From Ipomoea triloba (Eukaryota; Streptophyta; Magnoliopsida; Solanales; Convolvulaceae), in assembly GCF_003576645.1 (NCBI RefSeq), contig NC_044925.1:7721482-7785481 (forward strand): a stretch of 64,000 nucleotides of DNA, written 5' to 3'. The number at the start of each line of letters is the position of its first letter. Position 1 is the first letter of the stretch. The notes under the pieces were generated by a model, which was not told where the DNA came from, did not search any database, and saw only the letters and a list, made by a program, of their open reading frames with translations. The position numbers and the translations under genes are program-made. Of this stretch, positions 1,019-47,887 are shown piece after piece.

Positions 1019-1204
1019 TTATTGTGTATTATTGTATATACTAGGTATTAATATTGTGATGGTTGAATTAAAAAAATTGTGTATTATGCATATCTATATA
1101 CTTGCTATTATACGTTTTATATGTAAATAGCTAGTTTTAATTAGTATTTTAAAATTTAAATTATTTAGTTAGTTTTAGTTGGTAAAATATTTAATTAGTT
1201 TTTG

Positions 1205-18336: not shown

Positions 18337-18770
18337 CTAGTATTTTCACCATTGTGTTGCACAGAATGACTTTTGATATAATATTTTAAGAATATTTGGA
18401 TCGATATATAATTATATAAATTATAACATCAATATTATATAATGTAAATAATGAAATTGGTTGGATCGATTATGTTATCTAATTTTATTCTTGCTTGAAT
18501 TCGAGCAAATAATTTCCCAATAATACGTGCTCACAGATAAATTTTTTTAATTATATATTTAGATAATAAAATTAAAGAAAATTATAAAAAAAATTCTAAT
18601 ATTGAACGTGTACAATTATTTAATTATAAGATTAGTGCAAAAATATCACTCAATTAATTAAAGTGTTTGCAATTATTATCGATATGTAATATGATTTATG
18701 TAATTATATTATTACTAAAATAAATATGGGAAAAATGTGAAATAATTTAATTGTAATCTATATCTATCTA
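18337..18770 (-). mobile_element. Helitron-like 3' terminus, inverted
   Basis: Read on the minus strand, the end gtgaaaatactagt matches the terminus at 349-362, and the following 150 bp (cgatccaaatattc..., ttataatttatataat) matches the same family. The terminal hairpin is less perfect here (ctgtgcaacacaatgg). CTAG is at 18337-18340. No coding sequence. Confidence 0.5.
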
Positions 18771-19330
18771 TCTATTATCTACTATACTAATGAAAGCCAA
18801 AGAAAGTTAAGCCTATAATAGGTAGAAATAATGACGGGTCAAATTATTAAATCAAGAGAAATAAACTTATAATATCGTAGTTGCTCATAATTATTTTGGC
18901 CAATGGATGGTTCAGATTGTTTAGATTTATATTTTTCCTTAAGATTTCCTAATTTGTCATTAATTATATGATTTTCCGTTAAATTTTCTGTTAAATAATC
19001 TCTTTTACGTTAATATTCCGTTAACATTAACTTACCCATTAATTTCTATAAGTAAAGTCTTAGGTTCGAATATCATCCCAATCAGAGTTGGCATAAATAT
19101 GATTACCCGTTAAATGTTCCGTTAAATATTCTCTTTTCCGTTAACTTTTAACTTACCCATTAATTTCTATAAGTAATTAAGGTCTTAGGTTTGAATCTCA
19201 TACAATCAAAGTTGGCATAATTGTTGAACATATACTACAAATATGTTAGAGTATATTATTCAAAAGTAAGTACCTCACTTTATTACTCTTATTAAATTAA
19301 AAAATTAGTAATTACAACAAAAAAAAAATA

Positions 19331-19432
19331 CATATACTTCATTGATTCGGGGTTGATGTGACCCACCAGCGTTGGATCAATGATCTTGTCCAGTAATACC
19401 TTCTGCTTCAATTGCAATGCCCAGTGAAAATT
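19331..19432 (-). pseudogene. CrRLK1L-type receptor kinase fragment
   Basis: Minus-strand reading gives NFHWALQLKQKVLLDKIIDP followed by TLVGHINPESMK. This matches the C-lobe segment of FERONIA/THESEUS-family kinases (LAEWA...GLLEQIIDP.LVG.INPESL). Only about 34 residues remain. No catalytic loop, ATP site or malectin domain is present and no open frame extends it. A copy at 21747-21848 belongs to the duplicated assembly block. Best explained as an exon piece captured by the surrounding element. Confidence 0.6.
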
Positions 19433-20548
19433 CGGCGCCCCCCGTGATCGCTGATACTTTCTTCGTCTTCCCCTTGAAAATCGACACGGCTCTATAACAA
19501 AATACGTTGCTTTTCATTGTGAGCCCCATCTTCCCGCCGGTGTTTGCCTAGTGGTGGCAACGAGCCTTTGGTCGGAGTCCGACTGCACCCACGAGCCTCT
19601 GCTAATCCTGGCCCTCCTGCACATGTAGCAGCAGCTATCGTGGCAGGGCTGGAGAAGGTGTTAGAAGAAAATTTTTTTAAAAAAAAGTCTATGTCAACAT
19701 AGATTACCTGTAACCTGTAGGTTACCTTGTAAAAATTGCTAGATTAAAAAAAATTAATAGTTTATGTATTGAAATAGACCTTATGAAAGATCATGGTGCG
19801 GTATGAATAATTCAATATAGTTCATGGTGCACAATGGCACTTTAGCCTTTATAATTCGACGTCTATAATGCCTTTATTTAAAAAAAATCATTATCAAAAA
19901 ATTTAATTAATGCAAAGATTATATTCACTACATTGTTAATTCACTTTATAATTAATGCAAAAATCATTATAATTCACTTTAGTTATATTGTCAATATTTT
20001 CTCTAATGCAAAAATTCCTTACCTTCAAATTTATTAATTAATTATATTCACTACATTGTTCATTGTTTTTTTTTACACTATCTTGTAATTAAATATCAAA
20101 GTTATACTAAAAAATAATGTTATATATTTATTTACCAAGTATTATGCTAAAAACATGAAAGAAATTAAAAAAAAAAGTTCGAAACTAATCATATTAACTA
20201 CTTAGGGATGATTTTTTGAGAAATAAGACATTAAAAATAATAACACAATAAATTAATTTAAAACTTATTCTTAAAAATGTGAATGCAGGGCAATAAAACA
20301 CTGTGACACACTTGTTACATTGAAAAGATGTTGAAACTAAAACATTGCTGGAATCAATCTTTTAAATTCAGAAAATGAAGAAATTTAAAAAATAGCCACC
20401 GTTGAAGCATTCATTAATCTTGTATGTAAAATACTTATTGTGCATTCTTTAAATATATTAGAACTAATATAAATTTACAATTCATTTCATTTTCTACAAT
20501 CAACCTGCTTGGATTAAAGACAATCAGCATCAATCTTGACAACATAAA

Positions 20549-20886
20549 TAATTGGTATATAGAATGTAGCCATTGTTTAAAAATATTTATGCACAAAGCG
20601 GCAAACTATTTAACTGCATGCATTGTGATGAAATGCAGCAGTGGGTACTCCAAGAGTAATATCAAATCAACAAAAAAAATTTACCAAAAAAAAAGAAAAT
20701 ACATACACACACACAAAATCAAGTACTACACTAATTCATACTAATTTCAAAATTATAAACTTCAAAATAAACAAGTGCAAAATGGATGTAAAAATTGTTG
20801 ATGAAACTGGACATATTGCAACATCAGTATTCGGACTACTTGCAAAGTTATTGTTGTTATTATCAAGTAAACAAGTTATGAAACTA
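20549..20886 (+). pseudogene. RPA-like (replication factor A C-terminal) fragment
   Basis: Three pieces in three frames follow the order of the single-stranded-DNA-binding C-terminal OB fold of RPA70: WYIECSHCLK (first C-x2-C of a zinc ribbon, frame from 20553), NCMHCDEM (second C-x2-C, near 20612) and CKMDVKIVDETGHIATSVFG then LLAKLLLLLSSKQVMK (OB strands, DETG). Plant Helitrons often carry RPA-like genes, which fits the context. The frames are broken and no upstream DNA-binding domains are seen, so it is a remnant. The 114-codon frame from 20641 starts at GTG and mixes this with noncoding sequence. Identical copies at 22965-23302 and 25350-25687 are in the assembly duplicates. Confidence 0.5.
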
Positions 20887-21627
20887 GAACAAAATGTATT
20901 ACTTATTTTTTTTTTTTTGAAAAGAAATGTATTACTACCTCCGTCCCAAAATGGTTGTCTGGTTCGTTTAACGAGGCTTGACTGAAATAATTTTTAATCC
21001 AATTTTTCATATTATTAAGTTTAGCATTAATATATAAAATTTATATATTTAGAAACTACATTAAAATTACTATTAAACACAACAAATTAAATTTAAAAAT
21101 AATAAAAAATTACTAAAGAAAATAAGCAAAGAAGGAAGAGTTGGTTTGACCAATGAATAGTAAATAGGACAGGTAAAATGGGACATGGGGAGTACTTATT
21201 AATCTTCTACAAATATAATAAATATTAATATTTTTTTCAATACTTTCACATGAGAATGTATGACACATCTCACATCACATGAAACATATAGGGGGAAAAA
21301 CTATCACTGTCAAATATCAATAGGCACTTGCAAGATCAAGACTTCATAGGATAACTAAGATCTCAGTCATATATACAAACACAACGCGACAAATCCACAA
21401 CTACATCATAATCTCATTGCATGACGCTGCCCTCTATATACTACTACAATAACTCAATTGCACATGACACATTACCAAATACCAATAAATAAATTTAAAA
21501 AAAAAAGTAGTGAAGATAAAGACACTGACAATGCTACCCGAAAGAGAATTAAAAAGATTTAGAGAAATTCAAACAAAAAAGTAGTACTCTGTATTTATTT
21601 ATACTATTTTAGACTAAGTATTTATAT

Positions 21628-24043
21628 NTGGCATAATTGTTGAACATATACTACAAATATGTTAGAGTATATTATTCAAAAGTAAGTACCTCACTTTATT
21701 ACTCTTATTAAATTAAAAAATTAGTAATTACAACAAAAAAAAAATACATATACTTCATTGATTCGGGGTTGATGTGACCCACCAGCGTTGGATCAATGAT
21801 CTTGTCCAGTAATACCTTCTGCTTCAATTGCAATGCCCAGTGAAAATTCGGCGCCCCCCGTGATCGCTGATACTTTCTTCGTCTTCCCCTTGAAAATCGA
21901 CACGGCTCTATAACAAAATACGTTGCTTTTCATTGTGAGCCCCATCTTCCCGCCGGTGTTTGCCTAGTGGTGGCAACGAGCCTTTGGTCGGAGTCCGACT
22001 GCACCCACGAGCCTCTGCTAATCCTGGCCCTCCTGCACATGTAGCAGCAGCTATCGTGGCAGGGCTGGAGAAGGTGTTAGAAGAAAATTTTTTTAAAAAA
22101 AAGTCTATGTCAACATAGATTACCTGTAACCTGTAGGTTACCTTGTAAAAATTGCTAGATTAAAAAAAATTAATAGTTTATGTATTGAAATAGACCTTAT
22201 GAAAGATCATGGTGCGGTATGAATAATTCAATATAGTTCATGGTGCACAATGGCACTTTAGCCTTTATAATTCGACGTCTATAATGCCTTTATTTAAAAA
22301 AAATCATTATCAAAAAATTTAATTAATGCAAAGATTATATTCACTACATTGTTAATTCACTTTATAATTAATGCAAAAATCATTATAATTCACTTTAGTT
22401 ATATTGTCAATATTTTCTCTAATGCAAAAATTCCTTACCTTCAAATTTATTAATTAATTATATTCACTACATTGTTCATTGTTTTTTTTTACACTATCTT
22501 GTAATTAAATATCAAAGTTATACTAAAAAATAATGTTATATATTTATTTACCAAGTATTATGCTAAAAACATGAAAGAAATTAAAAAAAAAAGTTCGAAA
22601 CTAATCATATTAACTACTTAGGGATGATTTTTTGAGAAATAAGACATTAAAAATAATAACACAATAAATTAATTTAAAACTTATTCTTAAAAATGTGAAT
22701 GCAGGGCAATAAAACACTGTGACACACTTGTTACATTGAAAAGATGTTGAAACTAAAACATTGCTGGAATCAATCTTTTAAATTCAGAAAATGAAGAAAT
22801 TTAAAAAATAGCCACCGTTGAAGCATTCATTAATCTTGTATGTAAAATACTTATTGTGCATTCTTTAAATATATTAGAACTAATATAAATTTACAATTCA
22901 TTTCATTTTCTACAATCAACCTGCTTGGATTAAAGACAATCAGCATCAATCTTGACAACATAAATAATTGGTATATAGAATGTAGCCATTGTTTAAAAAT
23001 ATTTATGCACAAAGCGGCAAACTATTTAACTGCATGCATTGTGATGAAATGCAGCAGTGGGTACTCCAAGAGTAATATCAAATCAACAAAAAAAATTTAC
23101 CAAAAAAAAAGAAAATACATACACACACACAAAATCAAGTACTACACTAATTCATACTAATTTCAAAATTATAAACTTCAAAATAAACAAGTGCAAAATG
23201 GATGTAAAAATTGTTGATGAAACTGGACATATTGCAACATCAGTATTCGGACTACTTGCAAAGTTATTGTTGTTATTATCAAGTAAACAAGTTATGAAAC
23301 TAGAACAAAATGTATTACTTATTTTTTTTTTTTTGAAAAGAAATGTATTACTACCTCCGTCCCAAAATGGTTGTCTGGTTCGTTTAACGAGGCTTGACTG
23401 AAATAATTTTTAATCCAATTTTTCATATTATTAAGTTTAGCATTAATATATAAAATTTATATATTTAGAAACTACATTAAAATTACTATTAAACACAACA
23501 AATTAAATTTAAAAATAATAAAAAATTACTAAAGAAAATAAGCAAAGAAGGAAGAGTTGGTTTGACCAATGAATAGTAAATAGGACAGGTAAAATGGGAC
23601 ATGGGGAGTACTTATTAATCTTCTACAAATATAATAAATATTAATATTTTTTTCAATACTTTCACATGAGAATGTATGACACATCTCACATCACATGAAA
23701 CATATAGGGGGAAAAACTATCACTGTCAAATATCAATAGGCACTTGCAAGATCAAGACTTCATAGGATAACTAAGATCTCAGTCATATATACAAACACAA
23801 CGCGACAAATCCACAACTACATCATAATCTCATTGCATGACGCTGCCCTCTATATACTACTACAATAACTCAATTGCACATGACACATTACCAAATACCA
23901 ATAAATAAATTTAAAAAAAAAAGTAGTGAAGATAAAGACACTGACAATGCTACCCGAAAGAGAATTAAAAAGATTTAGAGAAATTCAAACAAAAAAGTAG
24001 TACTCTGTATTTATTTATACTATTTTAGACTAAGTATTTATAT
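21628..24043. repeat. Assembly duplicate: N plus 2415-bp exact copy of 19213-21627
   Basis: A single N at 21628 is followed by 21629-24043, identical to 19213-21627 (offset 2416). The first copy ends exactly at the N and the second continues into new sequence, which is how the end of one contig and the start of the next look when an overlap was not merged. Treat the features in it as duplicates. Confidence 0.9.
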
Positions 24044-24202
24044 TAGCGTTTTTAGAAAATTACAAACATTTATTTTAGTGACAATTTTAATAAATCTCTC
24101 ATATATTATCTTGCATTCATAAACTTTGAATTACCGATTTAAATAAAAAAATTCAACATTATTCAATTATTACAAATGCATGAACATCTCCTATATATAA
24201 TT

Positions 24203-24357
24203 AACCCAATGTGGTAGCTCAAGTGGCAAATGGGCTCTCTTTGTGGGGAAGAATTCTAGGAGAACCCGGGTTCGATTCCCACGAGTGACGATTTCTCTTG
24301 GGCCAGCTCCCGTGCCTCCTGGAGCGAACGTGGGTGAACTTACCAAAAAGAAAAAAA
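24203..24357 (+). mobile_element. tRNA-derived SINE (Au-like)
   Basis: A 155-bp element with a polymerase III A-box-like gtggtagctcaagtgg and B box ggttcgattcc, ending in an A-rich tail. It is bounded by a perfect 17-bp target duplication, atctcctatatataatt, at 24186-24202 and 24358-24374. Sequence and layout fit the Au-type SINEs of angiosperms. It is transcribed by RNA polymerase III and mobilised by LINE machinery; it encodes no protein. Confidence 0.9.
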
Positions 24358-24430
24358 ATCTCCTATATATAATTTTGCATTGATATACTTTAAAATAAAC
24401 ATTGGACATTATCTTATTCACGCAATGCGC

Positions 24431-24534
24431 ATGAAAAACTAGTACTATATATAAAAGTAAATCATCATATTTCATTACCCTCATGAAAAACTAGTACTAT
24501 ATATAAAAGTAAATCATCATATTTCATTACCCGT
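24431..24534. repeat. Two tandem copies of a 52-bp unit
   Basis: The unit beginning catgaaaaactagtactata is repeated head to tail at about 24430-24481 and 24482-24533. It includes the proposed Helitron 3' end (CTAGT), so the duplication contains the terminus. Confidence 0.85.
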
Positions 24535-24726
24535 CCAAACTTTTGTAGTCAATTAATTAAATATTTTATTGGTCAAATAATTAATAAAGTTTATTTCGTA
24601 AGAAAATGGAAAATAAATAATATTAGTGTAATAACATAATACCGTGTAAAAAAGATATATTAACTAGGCAATAACATAATAGTAGGTAATATTATGTATG
24701 GTATTCTATAATATAATTGGTAATAT

Positions 24727-27111
24727 NACTACATTGTTAATTCACTTTATAATTAATGCAAAAATCATTATAATTCACTTTAGTTATATTGTCAATATTT
24801 TCTCTAATGCAAAAATTCCTTACCTTCAAATTTATTAATTAATTATATTCACTACATTGTTCATTGTTTTTTTTTACACTATCTTGTAATTAAATATCAA
24901 AGTTATACTAAAAAATAATGTTATATATTTATTTACCAAGTATTATGCTAAAAACATGAAAGAAATTAAAAAAAAAAGTTCGAAACTAATCATATTAACT
25001 ACTTAGGGATGATTTTTTGAGAAATAAGACATTAAAAATAATAACACAATAAATTAATTTAAAACTTATTCTTAAAAATGTGAATGCAGGGCAATAAAAC
25101 ACTGTGACACACTTGTTACATTGAAAAGATGTTGAAACTAAAACATTGCTGGAATCAATCTTTTAAATTCAGAAAATGAAGAAATTTAAAAAATAGCCAC
25201 CGTTGAAGCATTCATTAATCTTGTATGTAAAATACTTATTGTGCATTCTTTAAATATATTAGAACTAATATAAATTTACAATTCATTTCATTTTCTACAA
25301 TCAACCTGCTTGGATTAAAGACAATCAGCATCAATCTTGACAACATAAATAATTGGTATATAGAATGTAGCCATTGTTTAAAAATATTTATGCACAAAGC
25401 GGCAAACTATTTAACTGCATGCATTGTGATGAAATGCAGCAGTGGGTACTCCAAGAGTAATATCAAATCAACAAAAAAAATTTACCAAAAAAAAAGAAAA
25501 TACATACACACACACAAAATCAAGTACTACACTAATTCATACTAATTTCAAAATTATAAACTTCAAAATAAACAAGTGCAAAATGGATGTAAAAATTGTT
25601 GATGAAACTGGACATATTGCAACATCAGTATTCGGACTACTTGCAAAGTTATTGTTGTTATTATCAAGTAAACAAGTTATGAAACTAGAACAAAATGTAT
25701 TACTTATTTTTTTTTTTTTGAAAAGAAATGTATTACTACCTCCGTCCCAAAATGGTTGTCTGGTTCGTTTAACGAGGCTTGACTGAAATAATTTTTAATC
25801 CAATTTTTCATATTATTAAGTTTAGCATTAATATATAAAATTTATATATTTAGAAACTACATTAAAATTACTATTAAACACAACAAATTAAATTTAAAAA
25901 TAATAAAAAATTACTAAAGAAAATAAGCAAAGAAGGAAGAGTTGGTTTGACCAATGAATAGTAAATAGGACAGGTAAAATGGGACATGGGGAGTACTTAT
26001 TAATCTTCTACAAATATAATAAATATTAATATTTTTTTCAATACTTTCACATGAGAATGTATGACACATCTCACATCACATGAAACATATAGGGGGAAAA
26101 ACTATCACTGTCAAATATCAATAGGCACTTGCAAGATCAAGACTTCATAGGATAACTAAGATCTCAGTCATATATACAAACACAACGCGACAAATCCACA
26201 ACTACATCATAATCTCATTGCATGACGCTGCCCTCTATATACTACTACAATAACTCAATTGCACATGACACATTACCAAATACCAATAAATAAATTTAAA
26301 AAAAAAAGTAGTGAAGATAAAGACACTGACAATGCTACCCGAAAGAGAATTAAAAAGATTTAGAGAAATTCAAACAAAAAAGTAGTACTCTGTATTTATT
26401 TATACTATTTTAGACTAAGTATTTATATTAGCGTTTTTAGAAAATTACAAACATTTATTTTAGTGACAATTTTAATAAATCTCTCATATATTATCTTGCA
26501 TTCATAAACTTTGAATTACCGATTTAAATAAAAAAATTCAACATTATTCAATTATTACAAATGCATGAACATCTCCTATATATAATTAACCCAATGTGGT
26601 AGCTCAAGTGGCAAATGGGCTCTCTTTGTGGGGAAGAATTCTAGGAGAACCCGGGTTCGATTCCCACGAGTGACGATTTCTCTTGGGCCAGCTCCCGTGC
26701 CTCCTGGAGCGAACGTGGGTGAACTTACCAAAAAGAAAAAAAATCTCCTATATATAATTTTGCATTGATATACTTTAAAATAAACATTGGACATTATCTT
26801 ATTCACGCAATGCGCATGAAAAACTAGTACTATATATAAAAGTAAATCATCATATTTCATTACCCTCATGAAAAACTAGTACTATATATAAAAGTAAATC
26901 ATCATATTTCATTACCCGTCCAAACTTTTGTAGTCAATTAATTAAATATTTTATTGGTCAAATAATTAATAAAGTTTATTTCGTAAGAAAATGGAAAATA
27001 AATAATATTAGTGTAATAACATAATACCGTGTAAAAAAGATATATTAACTAGGCAATAACATAATAGTAGGTAATATTATGTATGGTATTCTATAATATA
27101 ATTGGTAATAT
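24727..27111. repeat. Assembly duplicate: N plus 2384-bp exact copy of 22343-24726
   Basis: A single N at 24727 is followed by 24728-27111, identical to 22343-24726 (offset 2385). The earlier copy stops at the N, and the later one runs on into unique sequence (tattgtttgc). It contains repeat copies of the RPA-like fragment (25350-25687), the SINE (26588-26742) and the 52-bp tandem pair. Confidence 0.9.
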
Positions 27112-28714: not shown

Positions 28715-30690
28715 AATTTACAATTTTCCACAAACTATTACTATATAAAATCTAATAACTATTATGTTAATTAAGCTACTAATTACATGAATATTAATAT
28801 AATTACATTTTAACATGGTATAAAAGTATAATTGCACAATATTAGTATAATCACCTAATAATTATTAAGGTAATTAAGAAATTAATTACACAGATATTAG
28901 TATAATTGACTAATAATTATTATGTTAATAAAGCTAATAATTACACACATATTAGTATAATTACAATTAAACATGGGTTGTTGGATTTTATATAATAATT
29001 ACAATTAATTAATTCGGATATGGAAGAAGAAGAAAAAATTAAATGCGATATGGTGAAAATGAATATACTTAAGGTATAAAAGTATAATTGCACATATATT
29101 AATGTAATTAACTAATAATAATTGCCTAATAATTATTATGATAATTATGCTAAACATTGGTCGGATTTATTTTTATAGTAATTACAATTAAATTATTTCT
29201 CATTTTTTCAATATTTATTTTAGTAATAATATCATTAGATAAGTCATATTACATATCGATCTTTTTAAGATAATTGTAGACAAACAAGTCATATATTATT
29301 TAATTAATTGAGTGATACTTTTGCACTAATCTTATAATCAAATAAATGTACACGTTCAATATTATAATTTTTTAAAATTTCATCTTTTATTTTATTATCT
29401 AAATATATAATAAAAAATTTTATTAGTACATCACACGGGTAATTGGAAAATTATTTGCTATAATAATTCAAGCAAGAAAAACATCAGAAAACATAACCGA
29501 TCCAATCAATTTCATCAATTGCACCATATAATATTTGATGTTATAATTTATATAATTATATATTGATCCAAATATATAACAAATCCATCATGTGCCAGCG
29601 TTGGTCCCTTATAGGTGTTAAATCTATGTTAAATAGGTGTTAAAATTGAGGGCTAAAATGTAAAACTAAATACTTGAGGCTTTTATATATTACTACAATG
29701 TAATATATACTTCGTAATATTTTTTTTTATTGTATATTTTATTGTTGTATTAGGCTTTTTTTTTTTTTTTTTGCTTTATTTGATAGCAAAAATGGTAGAA
29801 AAGGGCACCGGTATGTTAATTTTTTTTTTTTGGCTTTATTATGTGTTTTTTTTGACTTTATGGTACAACTCATCCATCACTTTGATTACCAGATTTTCAA
29901 ACAGAAAAAGACAAATTAGAACAGTAAAAAAATTAACATAGAATAAAGAAAAAAAACACATAATACAACAATAAAATATAAAATAACACTCCACATCCAG
30001 TTAGAGAATTTACAAAAAGAAAAAAAATATTACGAAGTATATATTACATTGCAGTAATATATTAAAAGCTCAAATGTTTGGTTTTACTTTTTTGCTCTCA
30101 ATTTTAACACCTATTTAACCTAGATTTAACAAAAGGACCAAAATTGATACAAAATCAATAGTTAAGGGACCAACTTTGGTCAAATTAAAAGTCGAGGACA
30201 AAAATTGGTAAAAGTCAATAGTCGAAGGACCATTTCTGGAATTAACTCCAAAAGTAAATCCAACGACCAATGTTTAGCTTAACTACCATAATAATTATTA
30301 GCCAATTATTATTAGTCAATTATACTAATATATGTACAATTATACTTTTATACCTTAAGTATCATCACATTTAGTTTTTCCTCCTCCTCCATATCTGAAT
30401 GAATTAATTTTAATTATTATAAAAATCCAAAAACCCATGTTTAATTGTAATTATACTAATATACGTGTAATTATTAGCTTAACTAAATTAATAATTATTA
30501 GTCAATTATTCTAATACTTGTGTAATTAATTTCTTAATTACCATAATAATTATTAGACAATTATACTAATATTGTGCAATTATATTTTTATATCATGTTT
30601 AACTATAATTATAATAATATTCATGTAATTATTAGCTTAATTAATTATTATATTTTATATAATAATAGTTTGGTCGGGAAATTGTAAAAA
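28715..30690. repeat. Large imperfect inverted repeat (arms about 440 bp)
   Basis: The left arm 28715-29170 and right arm 30255-30690 are reverse complements with indels. Matching pairs include aacattggtcggattta / taaatccaacgaccaatgtt, aacccatgtttaa and caattttccacaaactatt / aatagtttggtcgggaaattg. The central 1.1 kb holds a Helitron-family piece (29430-29590) and a second nested inverted repeat (about 29600-29760 against 29955-30120, sharing aatatatacttcgtaatatt). No coding sequence. Confidence 0.7.
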
Positions 30691-33002: not shown

Positions 33003-34075
33003 AACAATTAAAACTAATTAACGTTGGTACTTCGTCTGGGGAGTCTTTGTTTGATTCCATTATTCCCAGAGTCTCACAGAGCCAGAATGACACTCTCCTT
33101 AAGCCTTTTGAGATTGAGGAGGCTAGGGCTGCTTTATTCTCCATGTTCCCTAATAAAGCACCAGGCCTAGAGATGAGATGAACCCAGGGTTCTATCAGCA
33201 GTTCTGGGACGTGGTAGGTGGTGATGTGTCGTCTTTTGTGGTTAACTGTCTAAACAGCTGCACTTTCCCGGAGGGACTCAATGATACTAATGTGGTTTTG
33301 ATTCCGAAGAAGCCGTGCCATGAGGAAGTGTCTAACTTGCGCCCTATTGCCCTATGTAATGTTGTCTATAAGATAATGTCTAAGATGGTGGCCAATCGAA
33401 TGAAACCTCTGTTAGGGGAAGTGATATCTTATTCCCAGAGTGCATTTATTCCTAATAGGTTGATCACTGATAATATTTTGATTGCCGCAGAGATTGGCCA
33501 TTATTTGAACAGGAAACAAGGTGGTAAAGTGGGTTGGGGGGCTCTCAAGCACTACAAGAAAAATCACGATTCGCGAAAGAAAAATTCCGTCGTGAAAACG
33601 TGAAATTCCGTCGCAAATCGTATTTTACGACAGAATTTTTCATTTTCGCGACGGAATCCATTCCGTAATGTCAAGGCTTGTCGTATTTCATTTCGTGACG
33701 GAAATAATCTGTCGCGAGCGGTGGCGACGGAAAATGGTGACGAAATTTTCCGTCGCAAAGTAGGCGACAGAAATCATTCCGTTGCGAGTCTGTCATGGTT
33801 TTCGCAACAGAAATGTTTCTTTCTGTCGCCATCGCGTTAAAAAATATTCCGTCGCGAAACTCATATTCCGTTGCATATTTATGTCGTGAAATATAACGAC
33901 GGAAATAATTTTTGTCGTGATTCCGTTGCTAACCTTTCCGTTGCGAATTTTATATTCCGTCGCACAATTACGTCGTAAGAAAAGGACGGAACAAATTTCC
34001 GTTGTGATTCCATCGCTAGAGATTTCGTCACAAAGTTTATTTTCCGTCACAAAATTTAGTCGTAAAAAAATAATT

Positions 34076-35334
34076 GAGTGAATGCCTTTTTTGGTCCTAC
34101 TGTTATTGGCGCTTTTCCAATTTTAGTCCGCTTTAGTTATTTTTGCCACATTGAGTCCACAGTTATTAAACGTGTTCCACTTTTGGTCCAGCGTTAAGTA
34201 TTCCGTCTAATGGCCGTTGGAGGGAGGGCTACTTTCGTCTTTTTACTCTGGTTTCCTCCTTTTACTCTGGTCGCCGCCCAGTTCCTCATCATTGAACGTG
34301 GAAGCTCCGGCATTCTTCTATTGCTCGCGATTCTTGCCCTCATTGTGATGCTTCCGCTAAATATGTACGCTGGGAAGGCTCCAATTGCTTATCAGTTCTC
34401 CAAAACTACTATCAATCATATAGAAAAAGGTCTGCCTTTGCTCTGGATTCACTTTATATTTGTTGTAGTTGTCGTTTTCTTCATGCATCACGGTATAAAT
34501 CAACTTCAACTAAGGTTGAAAGTAACTAGGCTTAGAGGTGTGTATGGTAATCCGAGTCAATCAAGTGCAAATTCTAGTGCGCCCCTGGCAACTGACATAT
34601 ATTGAAATCATCTGGGATCTACAAAGTTCTCGCTGAAATTGCGCAGGGTGTTTGTAAATACATGCCTGCTGTTGATGCTTTTGCTTTGCAGTTCCCCCCT
34701 TGCTATCATTAGTGCCATTGAGAGTGCATGGAGAATAATTAATGCAAAGGCAATGGATAATGCGCAGATGTGGCTTGCTTGGGTGCAGAGCTCAAGTTGG
34801 TTTGCGGCCATAGTCTTTCAGTTTCTGCCTAATGTTCTTATTTTTGTTAGCATGTACATCATCATCCCATCAGCTCACATTTATCTTTCTAAATTTGAAT
34901 GACATCTTATTGTGTTTGGAGAGCTAAGAGCGGCATTATTGAAAATGTCTGGAGAGCAAGAGCGGTGTCGGCACCACAGTGGTGGGCGATCTCACCGCGG
35001 TGGCGTGCCAGGCAGCGAGGAGCTTGGAGACAATTGCGATGGGTTCAGGCATGCGCATGTGGTCGCTGTGAAGCTTAATTAAAACAAAGATAAGGAGGCA
35101 TTCGAGGGCTTCGATGGCGGAGATGTTAAGCAGGTACTGAAAGGGTAAAGGGAGGATACCAGAGTAAAAAGACGAAAGTAGCCCTCCCTCAAACGGCCAT
35201 TAGACGGAATACTTAACGCTGGACCAAAAGTGGAACACGTTTAATAACTGTGGACTCAATGTGGCAAAAATAACTAAAGCGGACTAAAATTGGAAAAGCG
35301 CCAATAACAGTAGGACCAAAAAAGGCATTCACTC
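34076..35334. mobile_element. Pack-MULE inside the CACTA element
   Basis: Terminal inverted repeats of 177 bp (34076-34252 and 35158-35334, starting gagtgaatgccttttttggt) differ by about one base. A perfect 9-bp target duplication, aaaataatt, lies at 34067-34075 and 35335-35343. Long near-identical ends plus a 9-bp duplication identify a Mutator-like element. The interior has no transposase but carries pieces of a host membrane-protein gene, so it is a gene-capturing Pack-MULE. The high end-to-end identity suggests a fairly recent insertion. Confidence 0.96.
34282..34969 (+). pseudogene. Captured OSCA/CSC1-like channel fragments (RXW8 type)
   Basis: Two coding pieces of a calcium-permeable, stress-gated channel family protein. 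Piece one (34282-34602) reads GILLLLAILALIVMLPLNMY, AGKAPIAYQFSKTTINHIEK, PLLWIHFIFVVVVVFF, RLKVTRLRG: a transmembrane-rich N-terminal region. Piece two (34642-34969) reads [60 protein letters not shown], then FE, a TGA stop at 34900-34902 where Arg is expected, and [12 protein letters not shown]. The pieces come from separate parts of the parent protein, with the intervening cytosolic region missing. The upstream frame begins in the terminal repeat. It probably makes no working channel. Confidence 0.85.
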
Positions 35335-38300
35335 AAAATAATTGATCTAATCATTGTCGTGATTCCGTCGCATTTTGGGAGACAAAAATCGTTCTGTCAT
35401 AATGTTCATCGCCATAATCACGATGAATATTCAATCACTAAAATCATATTTCGTAACGATTATGCTAAATTATTTTTTTTTAAATATTTTGGTTATTATT
35501 ATTATTTTGTTAAAATTCTAATATTTGTATTTAAAATGTTAATATGCAAACTAAAATACAATATAATTTGTAATATAAAAGTGATACTACTTTGTAGTTC
35601 AAATATTAAATATTGTATTTAATACCAAATTCATGTCTAAACAACAATATAGTAATCCATTGAAAGAAAAATCAATATCAAGTTGATTTCGGTTATGATG
35701 AGAGTGATGATGAAGTACCGGCCCTCTCACTTTCAAGAACATCAAATCTTAGCTGCATAAAAACCATAAAAGCCTTCAAATTCTCAATCTCATCTTGCAT
35801 CTTTGCAGAACTAGCATTGTCCGATGACTGCGATGTTGATGATTCCATCGTCGTAGCGTGACGGACATGTGGGGGGTCGCATTTTCTATCGCTAATGTGT
35901 TAACATATTGACAACGAACTCGATTTTGTCGTCTCATTCTGTAGCAAAAAAAAAAAACAAAAAAAAAACTTTGCTTCCAAAAAAAAACTTTACTTAAAAA
36001 GTTAAATATTTTAGTGACGGAAAGAACGATCGTCGCAAGTTCCGTCGCCAACCTCAAACGTCAAAGCTATCTTTGCGCCAAACATCGAAACCGAATTAAT
36101 TTCTGTTGTAGATTCCAACGCTGTAGCACGACGGACATGATGGACTTCACATTTTCTGTCGTTAATGTGTTAACATATTGGCGATAGAATCATTTTGTCG
36201 TCTCATTCTGTAGCAAAAATAAAATTTAATTGAAAAATTAAATATTTTAGTGATGGAAAGAACGAGAGTCGCAAGTTCCGTTGCCAACCACAAACGTCAA
36301 ATCTATCTTTGCGCCAAACGTCGTAACAGAATTAATTTCCGTTGTTGATTCCATCGCCATAGCGCGACAGACTTGTAGGGCGTCACATTTTCTGTCGCCA
36401 CGTATCAATAGATTGGCAATAGAATTGATTTCGTCGTCCCGTTTTGTAGCAAAAATAAACTCTACTTCTAAATTTAAGTATTTTCGCAACGGAAAAAATA
36501 CTTGTCGCAATTTCGGTCGTCAACCTCCGTCGTCAATTCCTTGGTGCAAAGATAACGTGGGCATATTTTTCACTTTGCGCCAAATATCACAACATAATTT
36601 ATTCTCGTCGCTGATTCTGTCGCAAAATCGCGACGGAACCATTGGCCGTTGTCGTCATTGTGGTGACATAACTTAATTCCGTCATAAAATCCGTCACTGA
36701 AATTTGGGCGCCGAAATTTCATGGGTTTTGTCTCACTTTGCGCCAAAAATCACAACGGAATTGAATTTTGTCACCATTTCTGACGCAAATTCGTGACGGA
36801 ACACGTTTCGTCGCAAAAAACCGTCACAAATCGATAACGAATTACGTTCCGTCGCGATAATTCCGTCGCTTTTCGTGATTTTTCTTGTAGTGAAGCTTGA
36901 CATGGCTAAAGCATATGACCGAATGGAGTGGTCTTTTCTCCGCAAAATGCTTTTGGCGCTGGGATTTGCAACTGAATGGGTTAATCTCGTTATGCTGTGT
37001 GTCACCACGGTGTCATATAACATACTGGTTAATGGGGAGGTTGCTGGTCAGATTACCCCCACTCGTGGTATTAGGCAGGGTGACCCGCTCTCACCGTATT
37101 TGTTTATTATTTGTGCAGAGGGGCTCTCTTTGTTGCTACAGAAGGCTGAGTCACGTGGTTTGTTTCATGGTTGTAGGGTTGCTAGAGGGGCACCTTCGGT
37201 CTCACATTTATTTTTCGCAGATGATAGCCTCTTGTTTTTCAAAGCAACTAGTCAAGAAGCTGGAGTGCTTAAACAATGTTTGAATGAATATGAGAGTATG
37301 TCTAGGCAAGTAGTGAATTTTCACAAATCTAGTGTGTGTTTTAGTAGGAACACTACCGAAGTAGGCAGGGAAGAGGTGGCATCGGTTTTAGGGGTCATTC
37401 AGGCCACCAACTTTGGTAAATACCTGGGCTTGCCTTCATTTGTAGGGAGAAATAAGAAAGCTGTTTTCTCTTATATTGAGGATAAAATACGACACAGGAT
37501 TGGTTTGTGGAACAAGAGACTTCTGTCCCAGGCAGGTAAGGAAGTTTTGTTGAAAAGTGTGGCTCAATCAATGCCAACCTTTTCGATGAGTGTTTTCTTA
37601 CTACCTGACTCAGTGTGTGTGTCTATTGAAAGGGCTATGAATCGCTATTGGTGGGGGTCAGGAGCCGAAAGGGATATTCACTAGAAAGCCTGGGATCGTT
37701 TATGTGTCCCTAAAAAATATGGAGGGCTAGGTTTCAAGGAGTTGAGAGCTTTCAATTTGGCATTGTTGGGCAAACAGGCCTGGCGCTTCCTAACTATGCC
37801 TCATTCACTTGTGGCAAGAATATATAAGGCTAGGTACTTCCCAAGATCCTCCATTATTGATGCTACCACGGGCAATTGCCCAAGCTTCTGCTGGCACAGT
37901 ATCATGGCCTCCCATGAGTTGATCTGTAAAGGGATCAGGAGAAGAGTAGGGAATGATGCAACCACCTTAATTTAGGGTCACCCCTGGATGCCGGATGAGT
38001 CTTCCCCAATGATTCACACTGATATGCCGCCCCAGCTTGCAGGTTCCCTAGTGTCTGGCCTGATTAACCAAGATTCTAATACTTGGGACCTGGAGATCAT
38101 ACGTGATATTTTTGTGCCCACTGATGTGGAGCGCATTTTGAAAATCCCAATCAGCCCCACCTATGAGGACACTTGGTTTTGGTATGGACATCCTACCGGT
38201 TGCTACACGGTGAAAGACGGGTACAGGAGCATTGTGGGTGATTTTGTTAATGCCCCCGGGGCTTTTGATAATTGGTTACATTTTTAGAAGATTAAAGCCC

Positions 38301-39303
38301 CACCAAAATGGAAGATCTTTATTTGGAGAGCTATCTCTAATATCATTCCCACTACTTCAAACCTAATTTTAAAGAGGGTTGATTTAGATCCCTCATGCCC
38401 AATGTGTGGTCAATACCATGAGAACACAATGCACTCCCTCCTATTGTGTGAATTTTCAACAATGGTTTAGCATGAGTCCTCTATACCCATTCATAGTGTG
38501 GTTGGGCATGATTTTTGTATGTGGTTCACTAATGCAATGCATGTTCTTAGGGAAGAAGATTTATTTTGGTTGTAGCAGTGCTGTATCACCTATGGAGAGC
38601 TCGGAATTCTGCTGTCTGGGATTGCTGCCTGCCACGGCCGAAGTCAGTATGGCACAGCGCGAAGGCGGCGGCTGCTGCTTGGCGGCAGTTCCGATCCACG
38701 TCTATTCCAGCCCAGGCGTCGGCGTTACCAGCTTTGGCCGATCAGTCCATTGCTCCGCTGCTTGGTGGTCACACTGTCTACTGTTACTTCGACGCAGGGT
38801 ATCAGCCGGCGTCAAAGAGAGCCACCGTGGGGGTTGTCCTCTACTCACCCGACGGATCATTTTTAGCTGCTCGTGGTGGACCGTTATCGAATTGTTATTC
38901 CCCGCTTATGGCTGAATCTATGGCTTGCAAGGAGGTGCTATCTTGGATCAAGGATCGTGGGATCACTTCTGTAAGATTGCACACCGATTGTTCCAATCTT
39001 CAGAGTCTGTTAACCTCGGATCAAGTCAATATCTTTTCTTATGTTGCTTTCTCTATTGACGCTTCTAGAACTATTATGTCATCTTTTAATTCTTGTTCTA
39101 TTAGTTTAGTTTCTAGAACAGCCAATCGGGCTGCTCATACTCTTGTTACTGCGGCCTTTTCACAGGCTACCACGCTCTATTGGGATTCTATCCCACCTGA
39201 CGCTATTTCAGCTTTACTATAATATACCGTTCTGCAGTTGGTTTTCAAAAAAAAAACAATTAAAACTAATTAATTTATCGTTGGACACTTGGACATAACG
39301 TTT

Positions 39304-41805: not shown

Positions 41806-41942
41806 AGTAAGATCTGTAAAATAAAAAACTTAGGGTTTAGATCATCTAGTAAGATCTGTAAAATAAAAAACTTAGGGTTTAGATCATCGAATTTAGTCTG
41901 TAAAATAAAAAACTTAGGGTTTAGATCATCGAATTTAGTTTG
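41806..41942. repeat. Three tandem copies of a 42-47 bp unit
   Basis: Units of the form tctgtaaaataaaaaacttagg followed by gtttagatcatc(gaattt)ag occur at about 41812, 41854 and 41897. On the minus strand each unit contains a branch-point-like ctaaac and an acceptor-like ttttttattttacag, so the repeat multiplies a potential 3' splice site. The plus-strand frame repeats KICKIKNLGFRSS. Confidence 0.85.
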
Positions 41943-42330
41943 TTTGTTTGGAGTAGAAAATGATCAATACTTACTGTTAATGGATGGAAGCTCTTTGTAT
42001 CGCCATGGTTGCCGAAGTTTAATGCTCTGATTATGAAGCTGCTATGGCGGTGTGTAGAGGATTTGCTCTTCAAATACTGACCTTAGTGAATTAACACCCA
42101 AAAGATTTATTCATACTTAGAAAAATCTGGCGGAAGGCAGAGAATGAATTGATTTCCAAATCGGTAGAGGTTGCGTTCGAAGACATGAGAGCTGAGAGGA
42201 TGAAATAGAACGGCGAAATGGTGAAGGATTGCGAAATGTTGTCCTGAAACGGGTTGGATGGCAATTTATACTTGGGCTTAGATTCTGGTTGGGCGGAAAT
42301 GGAAATGGGTTGACCAGACATGTCAAATTA

Positions 42331-43709: not shown

Positions 43710-45527
43710 NAAGATCTGTAAAATAAAAAACTTAGGGTTTAGATCATCGAATTTAGTTTGTTTGTTTGGAGTAGAAAATGATCAATACTTACTGTTAATG
43801 GATGGAAGCTCTTTGTATCGCCATGGTTGCCGAAGTTTAATGCTCTGATTATGAAGCTGCTATGGCGGTGTGTAGAGGATTTGCTCTTCAAATACTGACC
43901 TTAGTGAATTAACACCCAAAAGATTTATTCATACTTAGAAAAATCTGGCGGAAGGCAGAGAATGAATTGATTTCCAAATCGGTAGAGGTTGCGTTCGAAG
44001 ACATGAGAGCTGAGAGGATGAAATAGAACGGCGAAATGGTGAAGGATTGCGAAATGTTGTCCTGAAACGGGTTGGATGGCAATTTATACTTGGGCTTAGA
44101 TTCTGGTTGGGCGGAAATGGAAATGGGTTGACCAGACATGTCAAATTAATTGTTTACTAAACTATTTTCAAAAAAAAAATTGTTTACTAAACTGATTAGC
44201 CCATTAATTATATATATATATATTGCTTTTTTTTTTTTGGAAATATATATATACATTGCTATTTCTCTATGTACACATTATTTATAAGATTTCTCTATAT
44301 ATTCACAAAATGTTTATAATTTATAAGATTAGTTCATACAAAAATCAATGTTCAAACACAAATGTCAATTGTAAGCTACTAGCTTATTTTAGGAGCATTA
44401 CCAAACAGAGCTTATAGCTTATTAGTAGCTTAAAATAAACTATAAACTCCTAAATAAGCTTTGCCAAACAGAGCCAATAAATTGAAGACATTGCAAAGGA
44501 TTTGAGAAATCTCAATTTTTTTGAAAAAAAAATGTACTTTATACATGGACAATGGTATGTGGGCCTATCTAGAGTTAGTTTTAATTTTTACACTTTTTGT
44601 AATATTTATATCAAATATATTTTAATGTATTGGTAATACATGAACTTATGTTTATATTAAGTTGTACATTATGACTTAATACTAATATTGTTAAATTGTC
44701 TAAAATTTATCCCATGCATCGCACGTTTGGCATATTAGGATCAATTGTACGTTTATCATGAAATTATTAATAATGTGTAATATTCAATTTATTTTTATTA
44801 ATTAATAATAATAAGTTTTGATTTTTAATTTAAATTTTAAATTCATGTATCTATTTATCTATTTATTATATTTAAATAATAAGTGGTAGAGGTAGCATGA
44901 ACGGTAGGTGATTGACGCCCGGTACTATGCGGCTCGAGTACAGCAACATTGTTCTCCTTCAATTTTGCTAATTTTCGGCAGAATTTGGTGTCATGTCCGG
45001 GATAGTTACAATAATTACAATACCGATCAGATCGGTTACCTGAATTTCTGAACTGGTTCTGCCGACCATTTGAGGAAGCAAAACCACCTCTACCACGCCG
45101 ACTGGAATCAGCCGAGCCATTAGACCGTCATTGTGTGGCATTGGCTGTAGGCATGTGAATAGTAGAAGCGGCTTCGTTGTCTTTCAACAACCTTTCGTAG
45201 TCGGTGAGGACATCATGCAACTCACCAAACGATATTGCCTCCGTCCAGACACGGAGAGCAGCCACAATCGGATTGTATTCCTCACCAAGCTGCGTGAATA
45301 TATGGATCACGAGGTCTTCTTCCGTGATCGGGCTTTGGTCAAGAGCCAAATCGTCAGCAATCGCCCGCATATCTCTCATATACGACTCAATTGACCGGTT
45401 GGCTTTTGGATTTTTGGCTAGCTTCGTTTTCAACGAAACTACACGGCCGCGAGACGCAGCGGCACAACTAGTGGACAAACGAGCCCACGCATCAGAAGCA
45501 GAAGTAGCAGATGAAATTACCGGTTGC
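43710..45527. repeat. Assembly duplicate: N plus exact copy of 41897-43709
   Basis: A single N at 43710 is followed by 43715-45527, identical to 41897-43709 (offset 1818, 1813 bp). The first four bases after the N (aaga) differ because the second contig starts in a different unit of the tandem repeat at 41806-41942. The earlier copy stops at the N in the middle of a copia gag, while the later copy continues through it, so the later one is the complete version. Confidence 0.9.
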
Positions 45528-45740
45528 AAAGTATCCGAGAGGCTGCCCAGGATGACACTCAAGATAATTTGGTCCTGCCTGAACCAAGTAGTATATGCAG
45601 GATTCAGCGTAGTGCGGGCTTCATCGGAGTATTTAGTCGGAGTAGCGGTAGAACCCGTGACATACCCGAGAAGATCAAGTCCTACGAGCGTGGATTCTAC
45701 CTATTTCTTCCAAATAGGAAATTCACAGAGGTAAGCTTGA
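44893..45740 (-). pseudogene. Copia gag pseudogene with zinc knuckle
   Basis: Minus-strand translation gives LLGYVTGSTATPT, TTWFRQDQIILSVILGSLSD, DAWARLSTSCAAASRGRVVS, IESYMRDMRAIADDLAL, the gag signature FTQLGEEYNPIVAALRVW, FGELHDVLTDYERLL, then a TGA stop at about 45128 (a CGA Arg codon is likely ancestral), then RSNGSADSSRRGRGG and the CCHC knuckle CNYCNYPGHDTKFC. An earlier in-frame stop lies near 45700. It forms the particle shell in live elements and is not functional here. The truncated copy at 43075-43709 is the assembly duplicate. Confidence 0.88.
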
Positions 45741-45843
45741 TAGGTAGGTGAGTCGGGGCGTGGATGTGAATGATAGTTGGGGACGTAGCAACAGCCATGA
45801 GTAATAAAGAGGAGGGGGAAAAAATTTTCTCGTTTAGAGGGAA

Positions 45844-45856
45844 GGCTCAAATACCA
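45844..45856 (-). other. Primer-binding site
   Basis: The minus strand reads TGGTATTTGAGCC, a variant of the Met-tRNA primer site (TGGTATCAGAGCC), lying directly inside the presumed LTR end. Confidence 0.6.
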
Positions 45857-45960
45857 TATGAGAATATAAACTTCTGTGTTTATTCACTGTAAGCCAATGA
45901 GCTTAAATAGTAATACAAAGCCACTAGGAAATAAGACTAGATTAATTCTTAACAGTAAGT

Positions 45961-47887
45961 GACTTGTGCAACATAGACATCCAAACAAAGAACAAGCAAG
46001 GAACGAATCGAGGTGGTGATTTCATGCCTTTTTATCTGTTTAAGAAGTTAGATTTGGGTATTCTTAAACCAACACGTATTTGCATTCAATTGGTTGATCG
46101 GTCCATTACGCATCCCAAGGGGATTGTTGAGGACGTGTTGGTTAGAGTCAATAAGTTTATCTTTCCTGTGGATTTTGTCATTTTAGACATAGATTTTGAC
46201 ATTGAGGTGCCACTTATCCTTGGTAGGCCATTTTTGGCAACTACGAGGGCACTTATTGATGTTGGGAGTGGGAAACTAGCCATTCGTGCTAGTGACGAGT
46301 GTGCTAGTTTTGACGTGTTTAAATTGACAAAATACCCCATGTCTGCTGATGATTCTTGCTATTTTGTTGATATCTTGCATAACCATATTGAGTCGGTAGT
46401 GCCCCATTTGATTCTTGATGAAAAAAACAAAAGAGATTTTGATAGGTTTAGTTGGGGCACTACTATTGCTTGTTGTGAAAAGAATTTTGAACTTGTTGAT
46501 AATAATCTTGTTGGTTGTGTAAATGATGAATCTTTGGATGTTGATGAGTTTGACAATGTTGATTCTTGTACTTGTGATTCTATTTCTGTTGCTGAAAATG
46601 ATAATGTTTGTTGTGATATGAATGGTGAAGTCGAGGAGGAAATGGTTGGATTAAAAAGGGTTGCATTAGTGGCTGATAATGTTAAAGAAAAACAAGAGGG
46701 GGGAATGGAAGAAAGTGGTGCGAAGAGTGAGCTTAAACCTTTACCCGAGCACTTTTTTGGGAGAGGATTCGACACTTCTAGTGGTGATTTCATCCTCACT
46801 AGAAGAGGACCAAAAGAATAGACTTGTGGGGGTGTTGAAAAAGAATAAAGGGGCAATTGGGTGGAAATTAGGTGACTTGAAGGGGATTAGTCCCACTTTG
46901 TGTACTCATAAGATCCTTTTAGAGGACGAAGCTAAGCCCGTAGCCCAACCCCAAAGAAGATTAAACCCCAATATGAATGAGGTTGTGAAAAATGAGGTAG
47001 TCAGACTCCTAGATGTGGGGATGATTTACTCCATTTCTAATAGTGCTTGGGTGAGTCCGACCCATGTTGTGCCAAAGAAAGGAGGGATAACTGTTGAGAC
47101 CAATGAAAAAAATGAATTGATTCCTGTTAGGAAGGTCACGGGTTGGCGGGTATGCATTGACTATAGAAGGTTGAATAATGCCACCCGTAAAGATCATTTT
47201 CCCTTACCTTTCGTTGACCAAATGGTAGAGAGGGTAAGTGGCCATGGGTTTTATTGCTTTCTAGATGAGATTAGTGGATATTTCCAAATCCCTGTGGCTT
47301 TAGAAGATCAAGAAAAAACCACTTTCACCTGTCCTTTTGGAACCTTTGCATACAGACGCATGTCATTTGGCCTGTGTAATGCACCAGCCACTTTCATGAG
47401 GCGCATGATAGCCATATTCGGGGATTACATTGGAGACTTTATGGAGGTCTTTATGGATGACTTTACCATTTGGGGGGAATCTTTTGAACAATGTCTTGAA
47501 AATCTGGAAAAAGTAATAGTAAGTTGTCAAGAGGTAAATCTTGCATTGAGTTGGGAAAAGTGTTATTATATGGTGGAAGAAGGAATAGTGTTGGGGCATA
47601 AGGTTTCAAAGAAGGGAATTGAAGTCGACAAAGCAAAAACATCTGTTATAGAAAACCTACCTCCACCCAACTCTGTTTCTAGCCTAAGAAGTTTCGTGGG
47701 TCATGCGGGGTTTTACCGAAGGTTCATTAAAGACTTTTCTAAGATAGCCAGACCCTTGACCAAGCTTTTAGAGAAGGATGTTGAGTTTGTCTTTGGAGAA
47801 GAGTGCCTAGTTGCCTTTAGGACTCTTAAGGATTTGTTGGTGAGTGCCCCTGTTCATGTGAATGATGAACATATGGCATTCAAGTGA
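45961..47887 (+). pseudogene. Ty3/gypsy (Athila-like) pol pseudogene: protease tail and RT
   Basis: Frame one (45964-46821) has FYLFKKLDLGILKPTRICIQ, FPVDFVILDID and PLILGRPFLATTRALIDVG, the C-terminal part of a retropepsin. The catalytic D-(T/S)-G strand that should precede it is absent. Frame two (to 47887) has AIGWKLGDLKGISPTLC, SNSAWVSPTHVVPKKGG, WRVCIDYRRLNNATRKDHFP, FGTFAYRRMSFGLCNAPATF, the catalytic FMDD, VLGHKVSKKGIEVD and FVGHAGFYRRFIKDFSKIAR. The switch between frames is at a run of six T near 46751-46757, a one-base slip. The element is cut off within the RT thumb at about 47880, so RNase H and integrase are missing. Both ends are truncated. Confidence 0.92.

What the first reader, a model, noticed from the sequence alone, without database searches (positions are those of the whole stretch)
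33003..39273. Three-level transposon nest with all three target duplications intact
The LINE (19-bp duplication) is interrupted by a CACTA (3-bp aag), which is interrupted by a Mutator-like element (9-bp aaaataatt). Each level can be removed on paper to restore the older sequence, including a continuous LINE reading frame (GALK-LDMAKAYDR). This gives a strict order of insertion.
Basis: seen in the sequence. Interest (0 to 1): 0.75.

Follow-up and report, generated by a model that had tools for sequence, protein, structure and literature searches.

The report
Three nested transposons, innermost carries gene
Three mobile elements sit one inside another in a plant chromosome, each with its insertion footprint intact, and the innermost turns out to carry rearranged pieces copied from one of the plant's own ion-channel genes; nests like this are ordinary in plants, but this one has an unusually readable history.

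Summary
Other copies support it: 39 of 39 LINE relatives examined have no CACTA at that site (38 join within 8 bases); 0 of 19 other CACTA loci carry the MULE and 14 of 19 run through its site. The Pfam RT profile stops at 68 and resumes at 70 across the CACTA.

A sister with its own 10-bp duplication lies on C4 (interior 98.3% identical). Three longer elements with the same ends carry MuDR-type transposase domains.

'Strict order' is only partly right: the LINE came first, but the CACTA could have carried the MULE in. No second CACTA+MULE was found, and the divergences (MULE ~1 My, CACTA 5-9 My, LINE ~9 My, upper bounds) fit the proposed order.

Ordinary in kind: new member of a known kind.

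The parts
33003..33021 (.). LINE target-site duplication, left copy
   Evidence: AACAATTAAAACTAATTAA, 19 of 19 identical to 39255-39273
33022..33549 (+). LINE 5' part (5'-truncated; start of RT; last 3 bases are the AAG duplicated by the CACTA)
   Evidence: RVT_1 profile 1-68; 87.6-87.7% to nearest held relative
33547..33549 (.). CACTA target-site duplication AAG, left
   Evidence: single AAG seen at the homologous place in the 7 relatives printed
33550..34075 (+). CACTA left part with subterminal repeats (end includes left AAAATAATT)
   Evidence: end inverted 20 of 20 with 36873-36892; 195 candidates in the genome, 40 scored
34067..34075 (.). MULE target-site duplication AAAATAATT, left
34076..34266 (+). 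MULE terminal inverted repeat, left
   Evidence: 191 sites, 4 substitutions to the right one; 1392 candidates in the genome, 40 scored
34272..34580 (+). captured piece A of the OSCA/CSC1-like gene (L099 849-1157)
   Evidence: 94.5% identity; PF13967
34576..34947 (+). captured piece B of the same gene (L099 1723-2094)
   Evidence: 94.6% identity
34948..34961 (+). 14-base filler resembling a second copy of gene sequence from L099 2062 on
   Evidence: first 11 bases identical
34962..35139 (-). captured piece C of the same gene, inverted (L099 854-676)
   Evidence: 90.5% identity
35144..35334 (-). MULE terminal inverted repeat, right
35335..35343 (.). MULE target-site duplication AAAATAATT, right
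35344..36892 (+). CACTA right part with repeats, several at 236-base spacing
   Evidence: no Pfam match at E up to 0.1 in 7 of 7 open frames scanned that lie in or overlap CACTA sequence
36893..36895 (.). CACTA target-site duplication AAG, right
36896..39254 (+). LINE 3' part: RT remainder, RNase H-like RVT_3, A-run (39247-39254)
   Evidence: RVT_1 profile 70-194 and RVT_3 E 6e-20
39255..39273 (.). LINE target-site duplication, right copy

Best explanation
A 5'-truncated plant LINE inserted by target-primed reverse transcription (19-bp duplication). A short non-autonomous CACTA element (2,075 bp without the MULE and one duplication copy) cut-and-pasted into its RT region (AAG). A non-autonomous Pack-MULE of 1,259 bp inserted into the CACTA (9-bp duplication). 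Shown: the structure, the empty sites in other copies, the parent gene, a full sister copy, and MuDR-type transposase domains in elements with the same ends. Inferred: the enzymes that moved them (mobilisation in trans); sequential rather than joint arrival of CACTA and MULE (about 0.75); and the way the Pack-MULE was loaded: from both MULE ends the single-exon OSCA-type gene was copied inward in its sense direction (left from gene position ~849 towards 2094, right from 676 to 854), the two copies were joined after a short re-copied filler, and a lineage then lost about 565 bp before it spread.
For: Ends and duplications. RT profile resumes across the CACTA at 68/70. Empty CACTA site: of 40 LINE places listed, all 39 others were examined; 39 of 39 have both flanks and no CACTA-end match; 34 of 39 join with the offset expected of a single 3-base copy, 4 more within 8 bases, and 1 (L023) at offset -33 projected over ~100 unaligned bases (AAG itself read in the 7; L002 and L003 belong to one tandem duplication). 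Empty MULE site: MULE in 0 of 19 non-self CACTA loci (3.4-3.5 kb each), 14 of 19 span its site. MULE interior in 5 places (5 candidates, 5 scored): self, C4 sister with perfect 10-bp TAAGAATTTA and 98.3% interior identity, partial copies on C3 and C9, and the parent, an unbroken 901-codon frame with PF13967, PF14703 and PF02714. The C9 copy shares the joint between pieces B and C, filler included (88.75% over 80 bases), but lacks the 1157|1723 joint. Of three longer same-end elements scanned, two carry PF03108 and PF04434 above cutoff and one PF10551 above cutoff.
Against: Topology does not prove that the CACTA entered the LINE before the MULE entered the CACTA. 5 of 19 CACTA loci do not span the MULE site by the rule used, and two of the 14 that do (L062, L063) align only at 73-76% with gaps. 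No orthologous site in another species could be examined. Dates conflict in places: the C4 sister's own ends differ at 12 of 184 sites and its left end is only 90.6% like the window's while its interior is 98.3%. Against the loading model: piece C is less like the parent (90.5%) than A and B (~94.5%); in the C3 copy a ~160-base dispersed repeat lies between the MULE end and the gene piece and the gene match begins at 835, with a gap, not 849, so the tight left joint may be derived; the C9 copy has ~280 unrelated bases between gene 1622 and 1620 and shows neither piece A nor a left end in the 2.1 kb held. Searches with the LINE 3' part, the CACTA right part and the outer flanks did not complete.
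Confidence: 0.9

Rival explanations
1. Joint arrival: the MULE had already inserted into this CACTA elsewhere, and the CACTA carried it into the LINE as a passenger, so that only two insertions happened at this locus.
For: Cut-and-paste leaves no donor copy, and a 1.26-kb insert away from the ends need not stop a CACTA (general knowledge); the CACTA ends are still matched 20 of 20.
Against: MULE in 0 of 19 other CACTA loci; in the DNA held around the other three Pack-MULE loci (4.5 kb at C4, 6.0 kb at C3, 2.1 kb at C9) no CACTA match longer than 40 AT-rich bases was seen; the nearest CACTA relative found is 88-92% identical while the MULE sister's interior is 98%, which points to an older CACTA.
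Confidence: 0.22
2. Assembly artefact or chance similarity: the three levels are stitched from separate copies or the duplications are accidental.
For: 3-bp AAG alone is weak (chance ~2%).
Against: Three element-appropriate duplications coincide with element ends, RT frame and profile run on across the CACTA, and other copies show both empty sites.
Confidence: 0.02
3. The MULE interior is not a capture but a degraded gene relocated by some other means, with MULE ends acquired later.
For: Two of the four MULE-associated copies (C3, C9) have only one recognisable MULE end in the DNA held.
Against: In the window copy gene pieces abut the inverted ends within 2-5 bases on both sides, and both the window and C4 copies have perfect 9- and 10-bp duplications outside the ends.
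Confidence: 0.04

Closest known systems
Pack-MULE (Mutator-like element carrying host gene fragments; e.g. tomato PM-ZIBP, PMC3310237, passages seen)
   Same: Long inverted ends, 9-11 bp duplication, small size (that paper reports tomato Pack-MULEs most abundant at 1000-1200 bp), host gene fragments, no transposase found.
   Different: Single pair of ends, not tandem as in most PM-ZIBP copies; the interior is pieces of one OSCA-type gene, one piece inverted; sits inside a CACTA.
CACTA (En/Spm) non-autonomous element; Tpn1 family of Ipomoea nil (PMC5105172, passages seen)
   Same: CACTA ends, 3-bp duplication, subterminal repeats, no transposase match.
   Different: Tpn1 has 28-bp ends; here the first 20 bases match perfectly. 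The Tpn1 end sequence was not compared, so no membership is claimed. The gene pieces here are in the MULE, not captured by the CACTA.
Plant L1-type LINE with RNase H-like domain (recalled, not tested by a tree)
   Same: RT then RVT_3 domain, A-run, long duplication, 5' truncation.
   Different: Nothing unusual seen; defective by change of frame and stops.
Multi-layer TE nests in plants (wheat 3B: 30,199 nested insertions reconstructed, up to 8 layers; PMC4290129, passages seen)
   Same: Element in element in element with recoverable order.
   Different: LINE, CACTA and MULE together with all three duplications intact; the innermost carries gene pieces.

Membership tests
LINE (non-LTR retrotransposon) | RT domain, A-run at the 3' end, long target duplication directly outside | tested here: met
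   RVT_1 and RVT_3, A-run and 19-bp duplication
LINE (non-LTR retrotransposon) | Placement in the L1 clade by RT tree | not tested
   No tree built; 'L1-type' is recalled from domain order
CACTA (En/Spm) | CACTA/TAGTG inverted ends | tested here: met
   20 of 20
CACTA (En/Spm) | 3-bp target duplication | tested here: met
   AAG both sides; single AAG in the 7 LINE relatives
CACTA (En/Spm) | Subterminal short repeats in both orientations | tested here: met
CACTA (En/Spm) | Transposase (TnpD-type) in this copy, as an autonomous member would have | tested here: not met
   0 of 7 open frames scanned match Pfam at E up to 0.1; filed as non-autonomous, where it is not a requirement
Mutator-like element (MULE) | Long inverted ends and 9-11 bp duplication | tested here: met
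   ~191 bp, 9 bp here and 10 bp at C4
Mutator-like element (MULE) | Same ends on elements encoding MuDR-type transposase | tested here: met
   3 of 3 longer elements scanned: L097 and L098 PF03108 and PF04434 above cutoff, L096 PF10551 above cutoff; whether any is intact was not tested
Pack-MULE | Host gene fragment between the ends with an identified parent gene | tested here: met
   Three pieces of L099
Pack-MULE | Movement after capture (more than one copy with its own duplication) | tested here: met
   C4 sister, TAAGAATTTA
Tpn1 family | 28-bp Tpn1 end sequence | not tested
   The Tpn1 end sequence was not looked up or compared

The most novel reading that the evidence does not exclude
The Pack-MULE family is a stepwise fossil record of gene capture: both MULE ends copied the same host gene inward in its sense direction, met end to end after local re-copying, one lineage lost an internal stretch and gained a stop, and then spread; and its inverted piece makes a read-through transcript of the element antisense to the 5' part of an OSCA-type channel gene, so the element could feed small RNAs against its parent.
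Probability: 0.15. Interest if true: 0.5.

Novelty: new member of a known kind. Interest (0 to 1): 0.33.

Why it matters
As a nest it is ordinary. Its value is as a clean worked case: three insertion footprints, empty sites for two levels, and a Pack-MULE with a known parent, a full sister and partial relatives that differ in their joints. PMC8277862 (passages seen) says that whether gap filling or fork switching also forms plant Pack-MULEs is worth exploring; a small family with visible steps bears on that. If the genome is that of Ipomoea trifida, whose split from I. triloba PMC6214957 puts at ~2.2 My (passages seen), the MULE (~1.2-1.3 My from its sister) should be absent from this site in I. 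triloba, which is a direct test.

Tried and rejected
Considered and rejected: (a) Strand-biased G>A decay in the LINE as a sign of editing: a first count of 37 G>A against 10 C>T became p = 0.03 when scaled by base content, with an opposite bias in the nearest relative (p = 0.03) and none in the three others counted (p 0.80, 0.26, 0.53); dropped. The five TAGs were not pursued. (b) A second host gene in the right part of the MULE: it is the inverted 5' piece of the same gene. (c) An intron inside the captured piece: the parent frame is unbroken there. (d) A coding role for the captured frame: a TGA stands for TGG at 34603-34605, shared by the C4 and C3 copies, and the window copy has a further TGA and a one-base loss against C4. 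(e) MULE-end divergence as a clock: window ends 4 of 191 sites, C4 ends 12 of 184, so it is not steady.

Little use: solved-structure search of the second MULE frame, 0 matches. Paper searches: listings only; passages seen in PMC3903597, PMC5105172, PMC3310237, PMC8978399, PMC6214957, PMC4624379, PMC4290129 and PMC8277862; no paper was read whole. Nine papers hold both 'Pack-MULE' and 'Ipomoea', and of 160 for the OSCA terms ten were listed, none holding 'Pack-MULE'; beyond these two searches I make no claim that this element is unreported.

Dates use K2P and 7e-9 per site per year (PMC6214957 passage), against the nearest copies found, not family consensuses; they are upper bounds on insertion, since copies split at or before the insertion. 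Constraint on the parent gene makes the capture date (~4.6 My, 52 of 849 sites) rough.

Full report
What is there. The window lies at G000:C10:7721482-7785481 of a 461,989,178-base, 17-contig genome. The size equals the 462.0 Mb published for Ipomoea trifida (PMC6214957, passages), and the 15 contigs from which loci were fetched (C1-C15) are each 21-38 Mb; the species is inferred, not shown.

More than chance. Chance of the duplications at fixed places from base content is about 3e-11, 2e-2 and 7e-6. The weak middle one is carried by other evidence. The CACTA ends match 20 of 20. The Pfam reverse transcriptase profile is matched to position 68 on one side and from 70 on the other. Of the 40 LINE places listed (163 candidates, 40 scored), all 39 others were examined: all 39 have both flanks and none a CACTA-end match; 34 join with the offset of a single 3-base copy, 4 within 8 bases, and L023 at offset -33 projected over about 100 unaligned bases. 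The bases themselves were printed for 7 relatives, each with one AAG. L002 and L003 belong to one tandem duplication, so the 39 are at most 38 independent sites.

Empty MULE site. For the CACTA left end 195 candidates were found and 40 scored; 20 came as loci of 3.4-3.5 kb, one of them this one. The MULE matches none of the other 19. By the rule that the best alignment covers at least 30 bases on both sides, 14 of 19 run through the site without the MULE; L054, L055, L057, L059 and L060 do not satisfy the rule, and L062 and L063 pass with gapped alignments of 73-76%. The nearest, L045, is 90% identical over 160 bases without a gap across the site.

The innermost element is a Pack-MULE. Its first open frame matches PF13967 (E 1.3e-6, 28.6 bits against a cutoff of 27) and solved TMEM63/CSC1-like channels (E 2e-6). 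The interior was found in five places (5 candidates, 5 scored; the tool warns that counts are lower bounds): here; C4:3512163-3513034 (98%); C3:18567861-18568407 (94%, first 537 bases); C9:23727425-23727989 (92%, bases 307-871); and C3:4816275-4817693 in three pieces. The last is an unbroken 901-codon frame with PF13967, PF14703 and PF02714 and matches solved OSCA and CSC1-like chains (18 sequences at E up to 1e-10). OSCA4.1 is the single-exon OSCA in rice (PMC4624379, passages), so the parent is probably OSCA4-like, which I did not test by a tree.

How the pieces lie. Relative to the gene locus L099: MULE 197-505 = 849-1157 (+), 501-872 = 1723-2094 (+), 887-1064 = 854-676 (inverted). Between the last two lie 14 bases that resemble gene sequence from position 2062 on. 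Thus from both ends of the element the gene is read inward in its sense direction. The C9 copy (L100) has gene 1379-1622, about 280 unrelated bases, gene 1620-2094, the same joint with filler (88.75% over 80 bases), the inverted 676-854 and a MULE end, without the window's joint between 1157 and 1723; piece A and a left end are not seen in the 2.1 kb held. The C3 copy (L094) shares the 1157|1723 joint; in it a ~160-base repeat, also found beside other loci held (L053, L060), lies between the MULE end and the gene piece, and the gene match begins at 835 with a gap. The simplest history (inference): capture; loss of about 565 bases, with a two-base (GC) match at the joint by my reading; a TGG-to-TGA change shared by the window, C4 and C3 copies (C9 has TGG); then spread. 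The C3 left joint leaves open whether the window's tight left joint is original.

Family and mobility. The ends recur widely (1,392 candidates, 40 scored). Three longer elements with these ends, chosen for length, were fetched: those on C11 and C2 carry PF03108 and PF04434 above cutoff, that on C9 carries PF10551 above cutoff; C2 also has a sub-cutoff PF10551 and a 10-bp duplication. Whether any is intact was not tested; mobilisation of the short Pack-MULE by such elements is inference. The CACTA here has no Pfam match in the seven frames scanned and is taken as non-autonomous.

Ages. With K2P and 7e-9: Pack-MULE against C4 sister 14 of 873 interior sites, 1.16 My (22 of 1,246 over the whole element, 1.28 My); MULE ends against each other 4 of 191, 1.5 My, but the C4 sister's ends 12 of 184; Pack-MULE against the gene 52 of 849, 4.6 My; CACTA against L045 5.3 My (right part) and 9.3 My (left part); LINE against its nearest held relative 9.1 My. 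These are upper bounds for the insertions here, taken against the nearest copies found rather than a family consensus. They agree with the order LINE, CACTA, MULE without proving it.

Order. Each outer element must exist before the inner one enters it. That makes LINE before CACTA strict at this place. It does not make CACTA-in-LINE before MULE-in-CACTA strict, because a cut-and-paste element can carry a passenger. No other CACTA+MULE copy was found in the loci held. I put the sequential order at about 0.75 and joint arrival at 0.22.

Verdict. Nests with up to eight layers are known from wheat (PMC4290129, passages), and Pack-MULEs of this size from tomato (PMC3310237, passages). The added value is the partly readable capture history of a small Pack-MULE family, relevant to the open question of how Pack-MULEs form in plants (PMC8277862, passages).

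Noticed in passing
13668-17285 (-) and 59754-63131 (-): Two long open frames with Rx_N, NB-ARC and LRR domains: the nest lies between two plant NLR genes; direct repeats 3,280 bases apart (9420/12700, 10343/13623) copy part of one.
   Followed up: partly
19213-25027: Identical 300-base samples recur at spacings of 2416 and 2385: a ~2.4-kb unit in two to three tandem copies.
   Followed up: no
45128-47887: A copia-type gag frame on the minus strand (PF14223) beside a reverse transcriptase frame on the plus strand (PF00078).
   Followed up: no
41897-42196 and 43715-44014: Identical 300-base direct repeats 1,818 bases apart, possibly the long terminal repeats of a short, recent element.
   Followed up: no
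28767-30644: Nested long inverted repeats (223, 104 and 121 bases, 88-91%) and a partner at 18431-18757, a foldback-like structure.
   Followed up: no
L009 (G000:C11:17701500-17711400): The nearest LINE relative is in a 99.9% identical direct duplication of at least 2,792 bases, spacing 4,575 bases.
   Followed up: no
L094 3730-5702: About 0.8 kb beyond the truncated Pack-MULE copy on C3 lies a stretch with six overlapping long open frames on both strands, as a simple tandem repeat would give.
   Followed up: no
L095, G000:C4:3511981-3513227: In the C4 sister the left MULE end is 90.6% like the window's while the interior is 98.3%: the end has diverged much faster, or was exchanged.
   Followed up: no
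37682, 37973, 38285, 38468, 38573: All five stops of the LINE frame after the CACTA up to 38600 are TAG; by recalled plant LINE sequence the first four replace tryptophan codons.
   Followed up: partly
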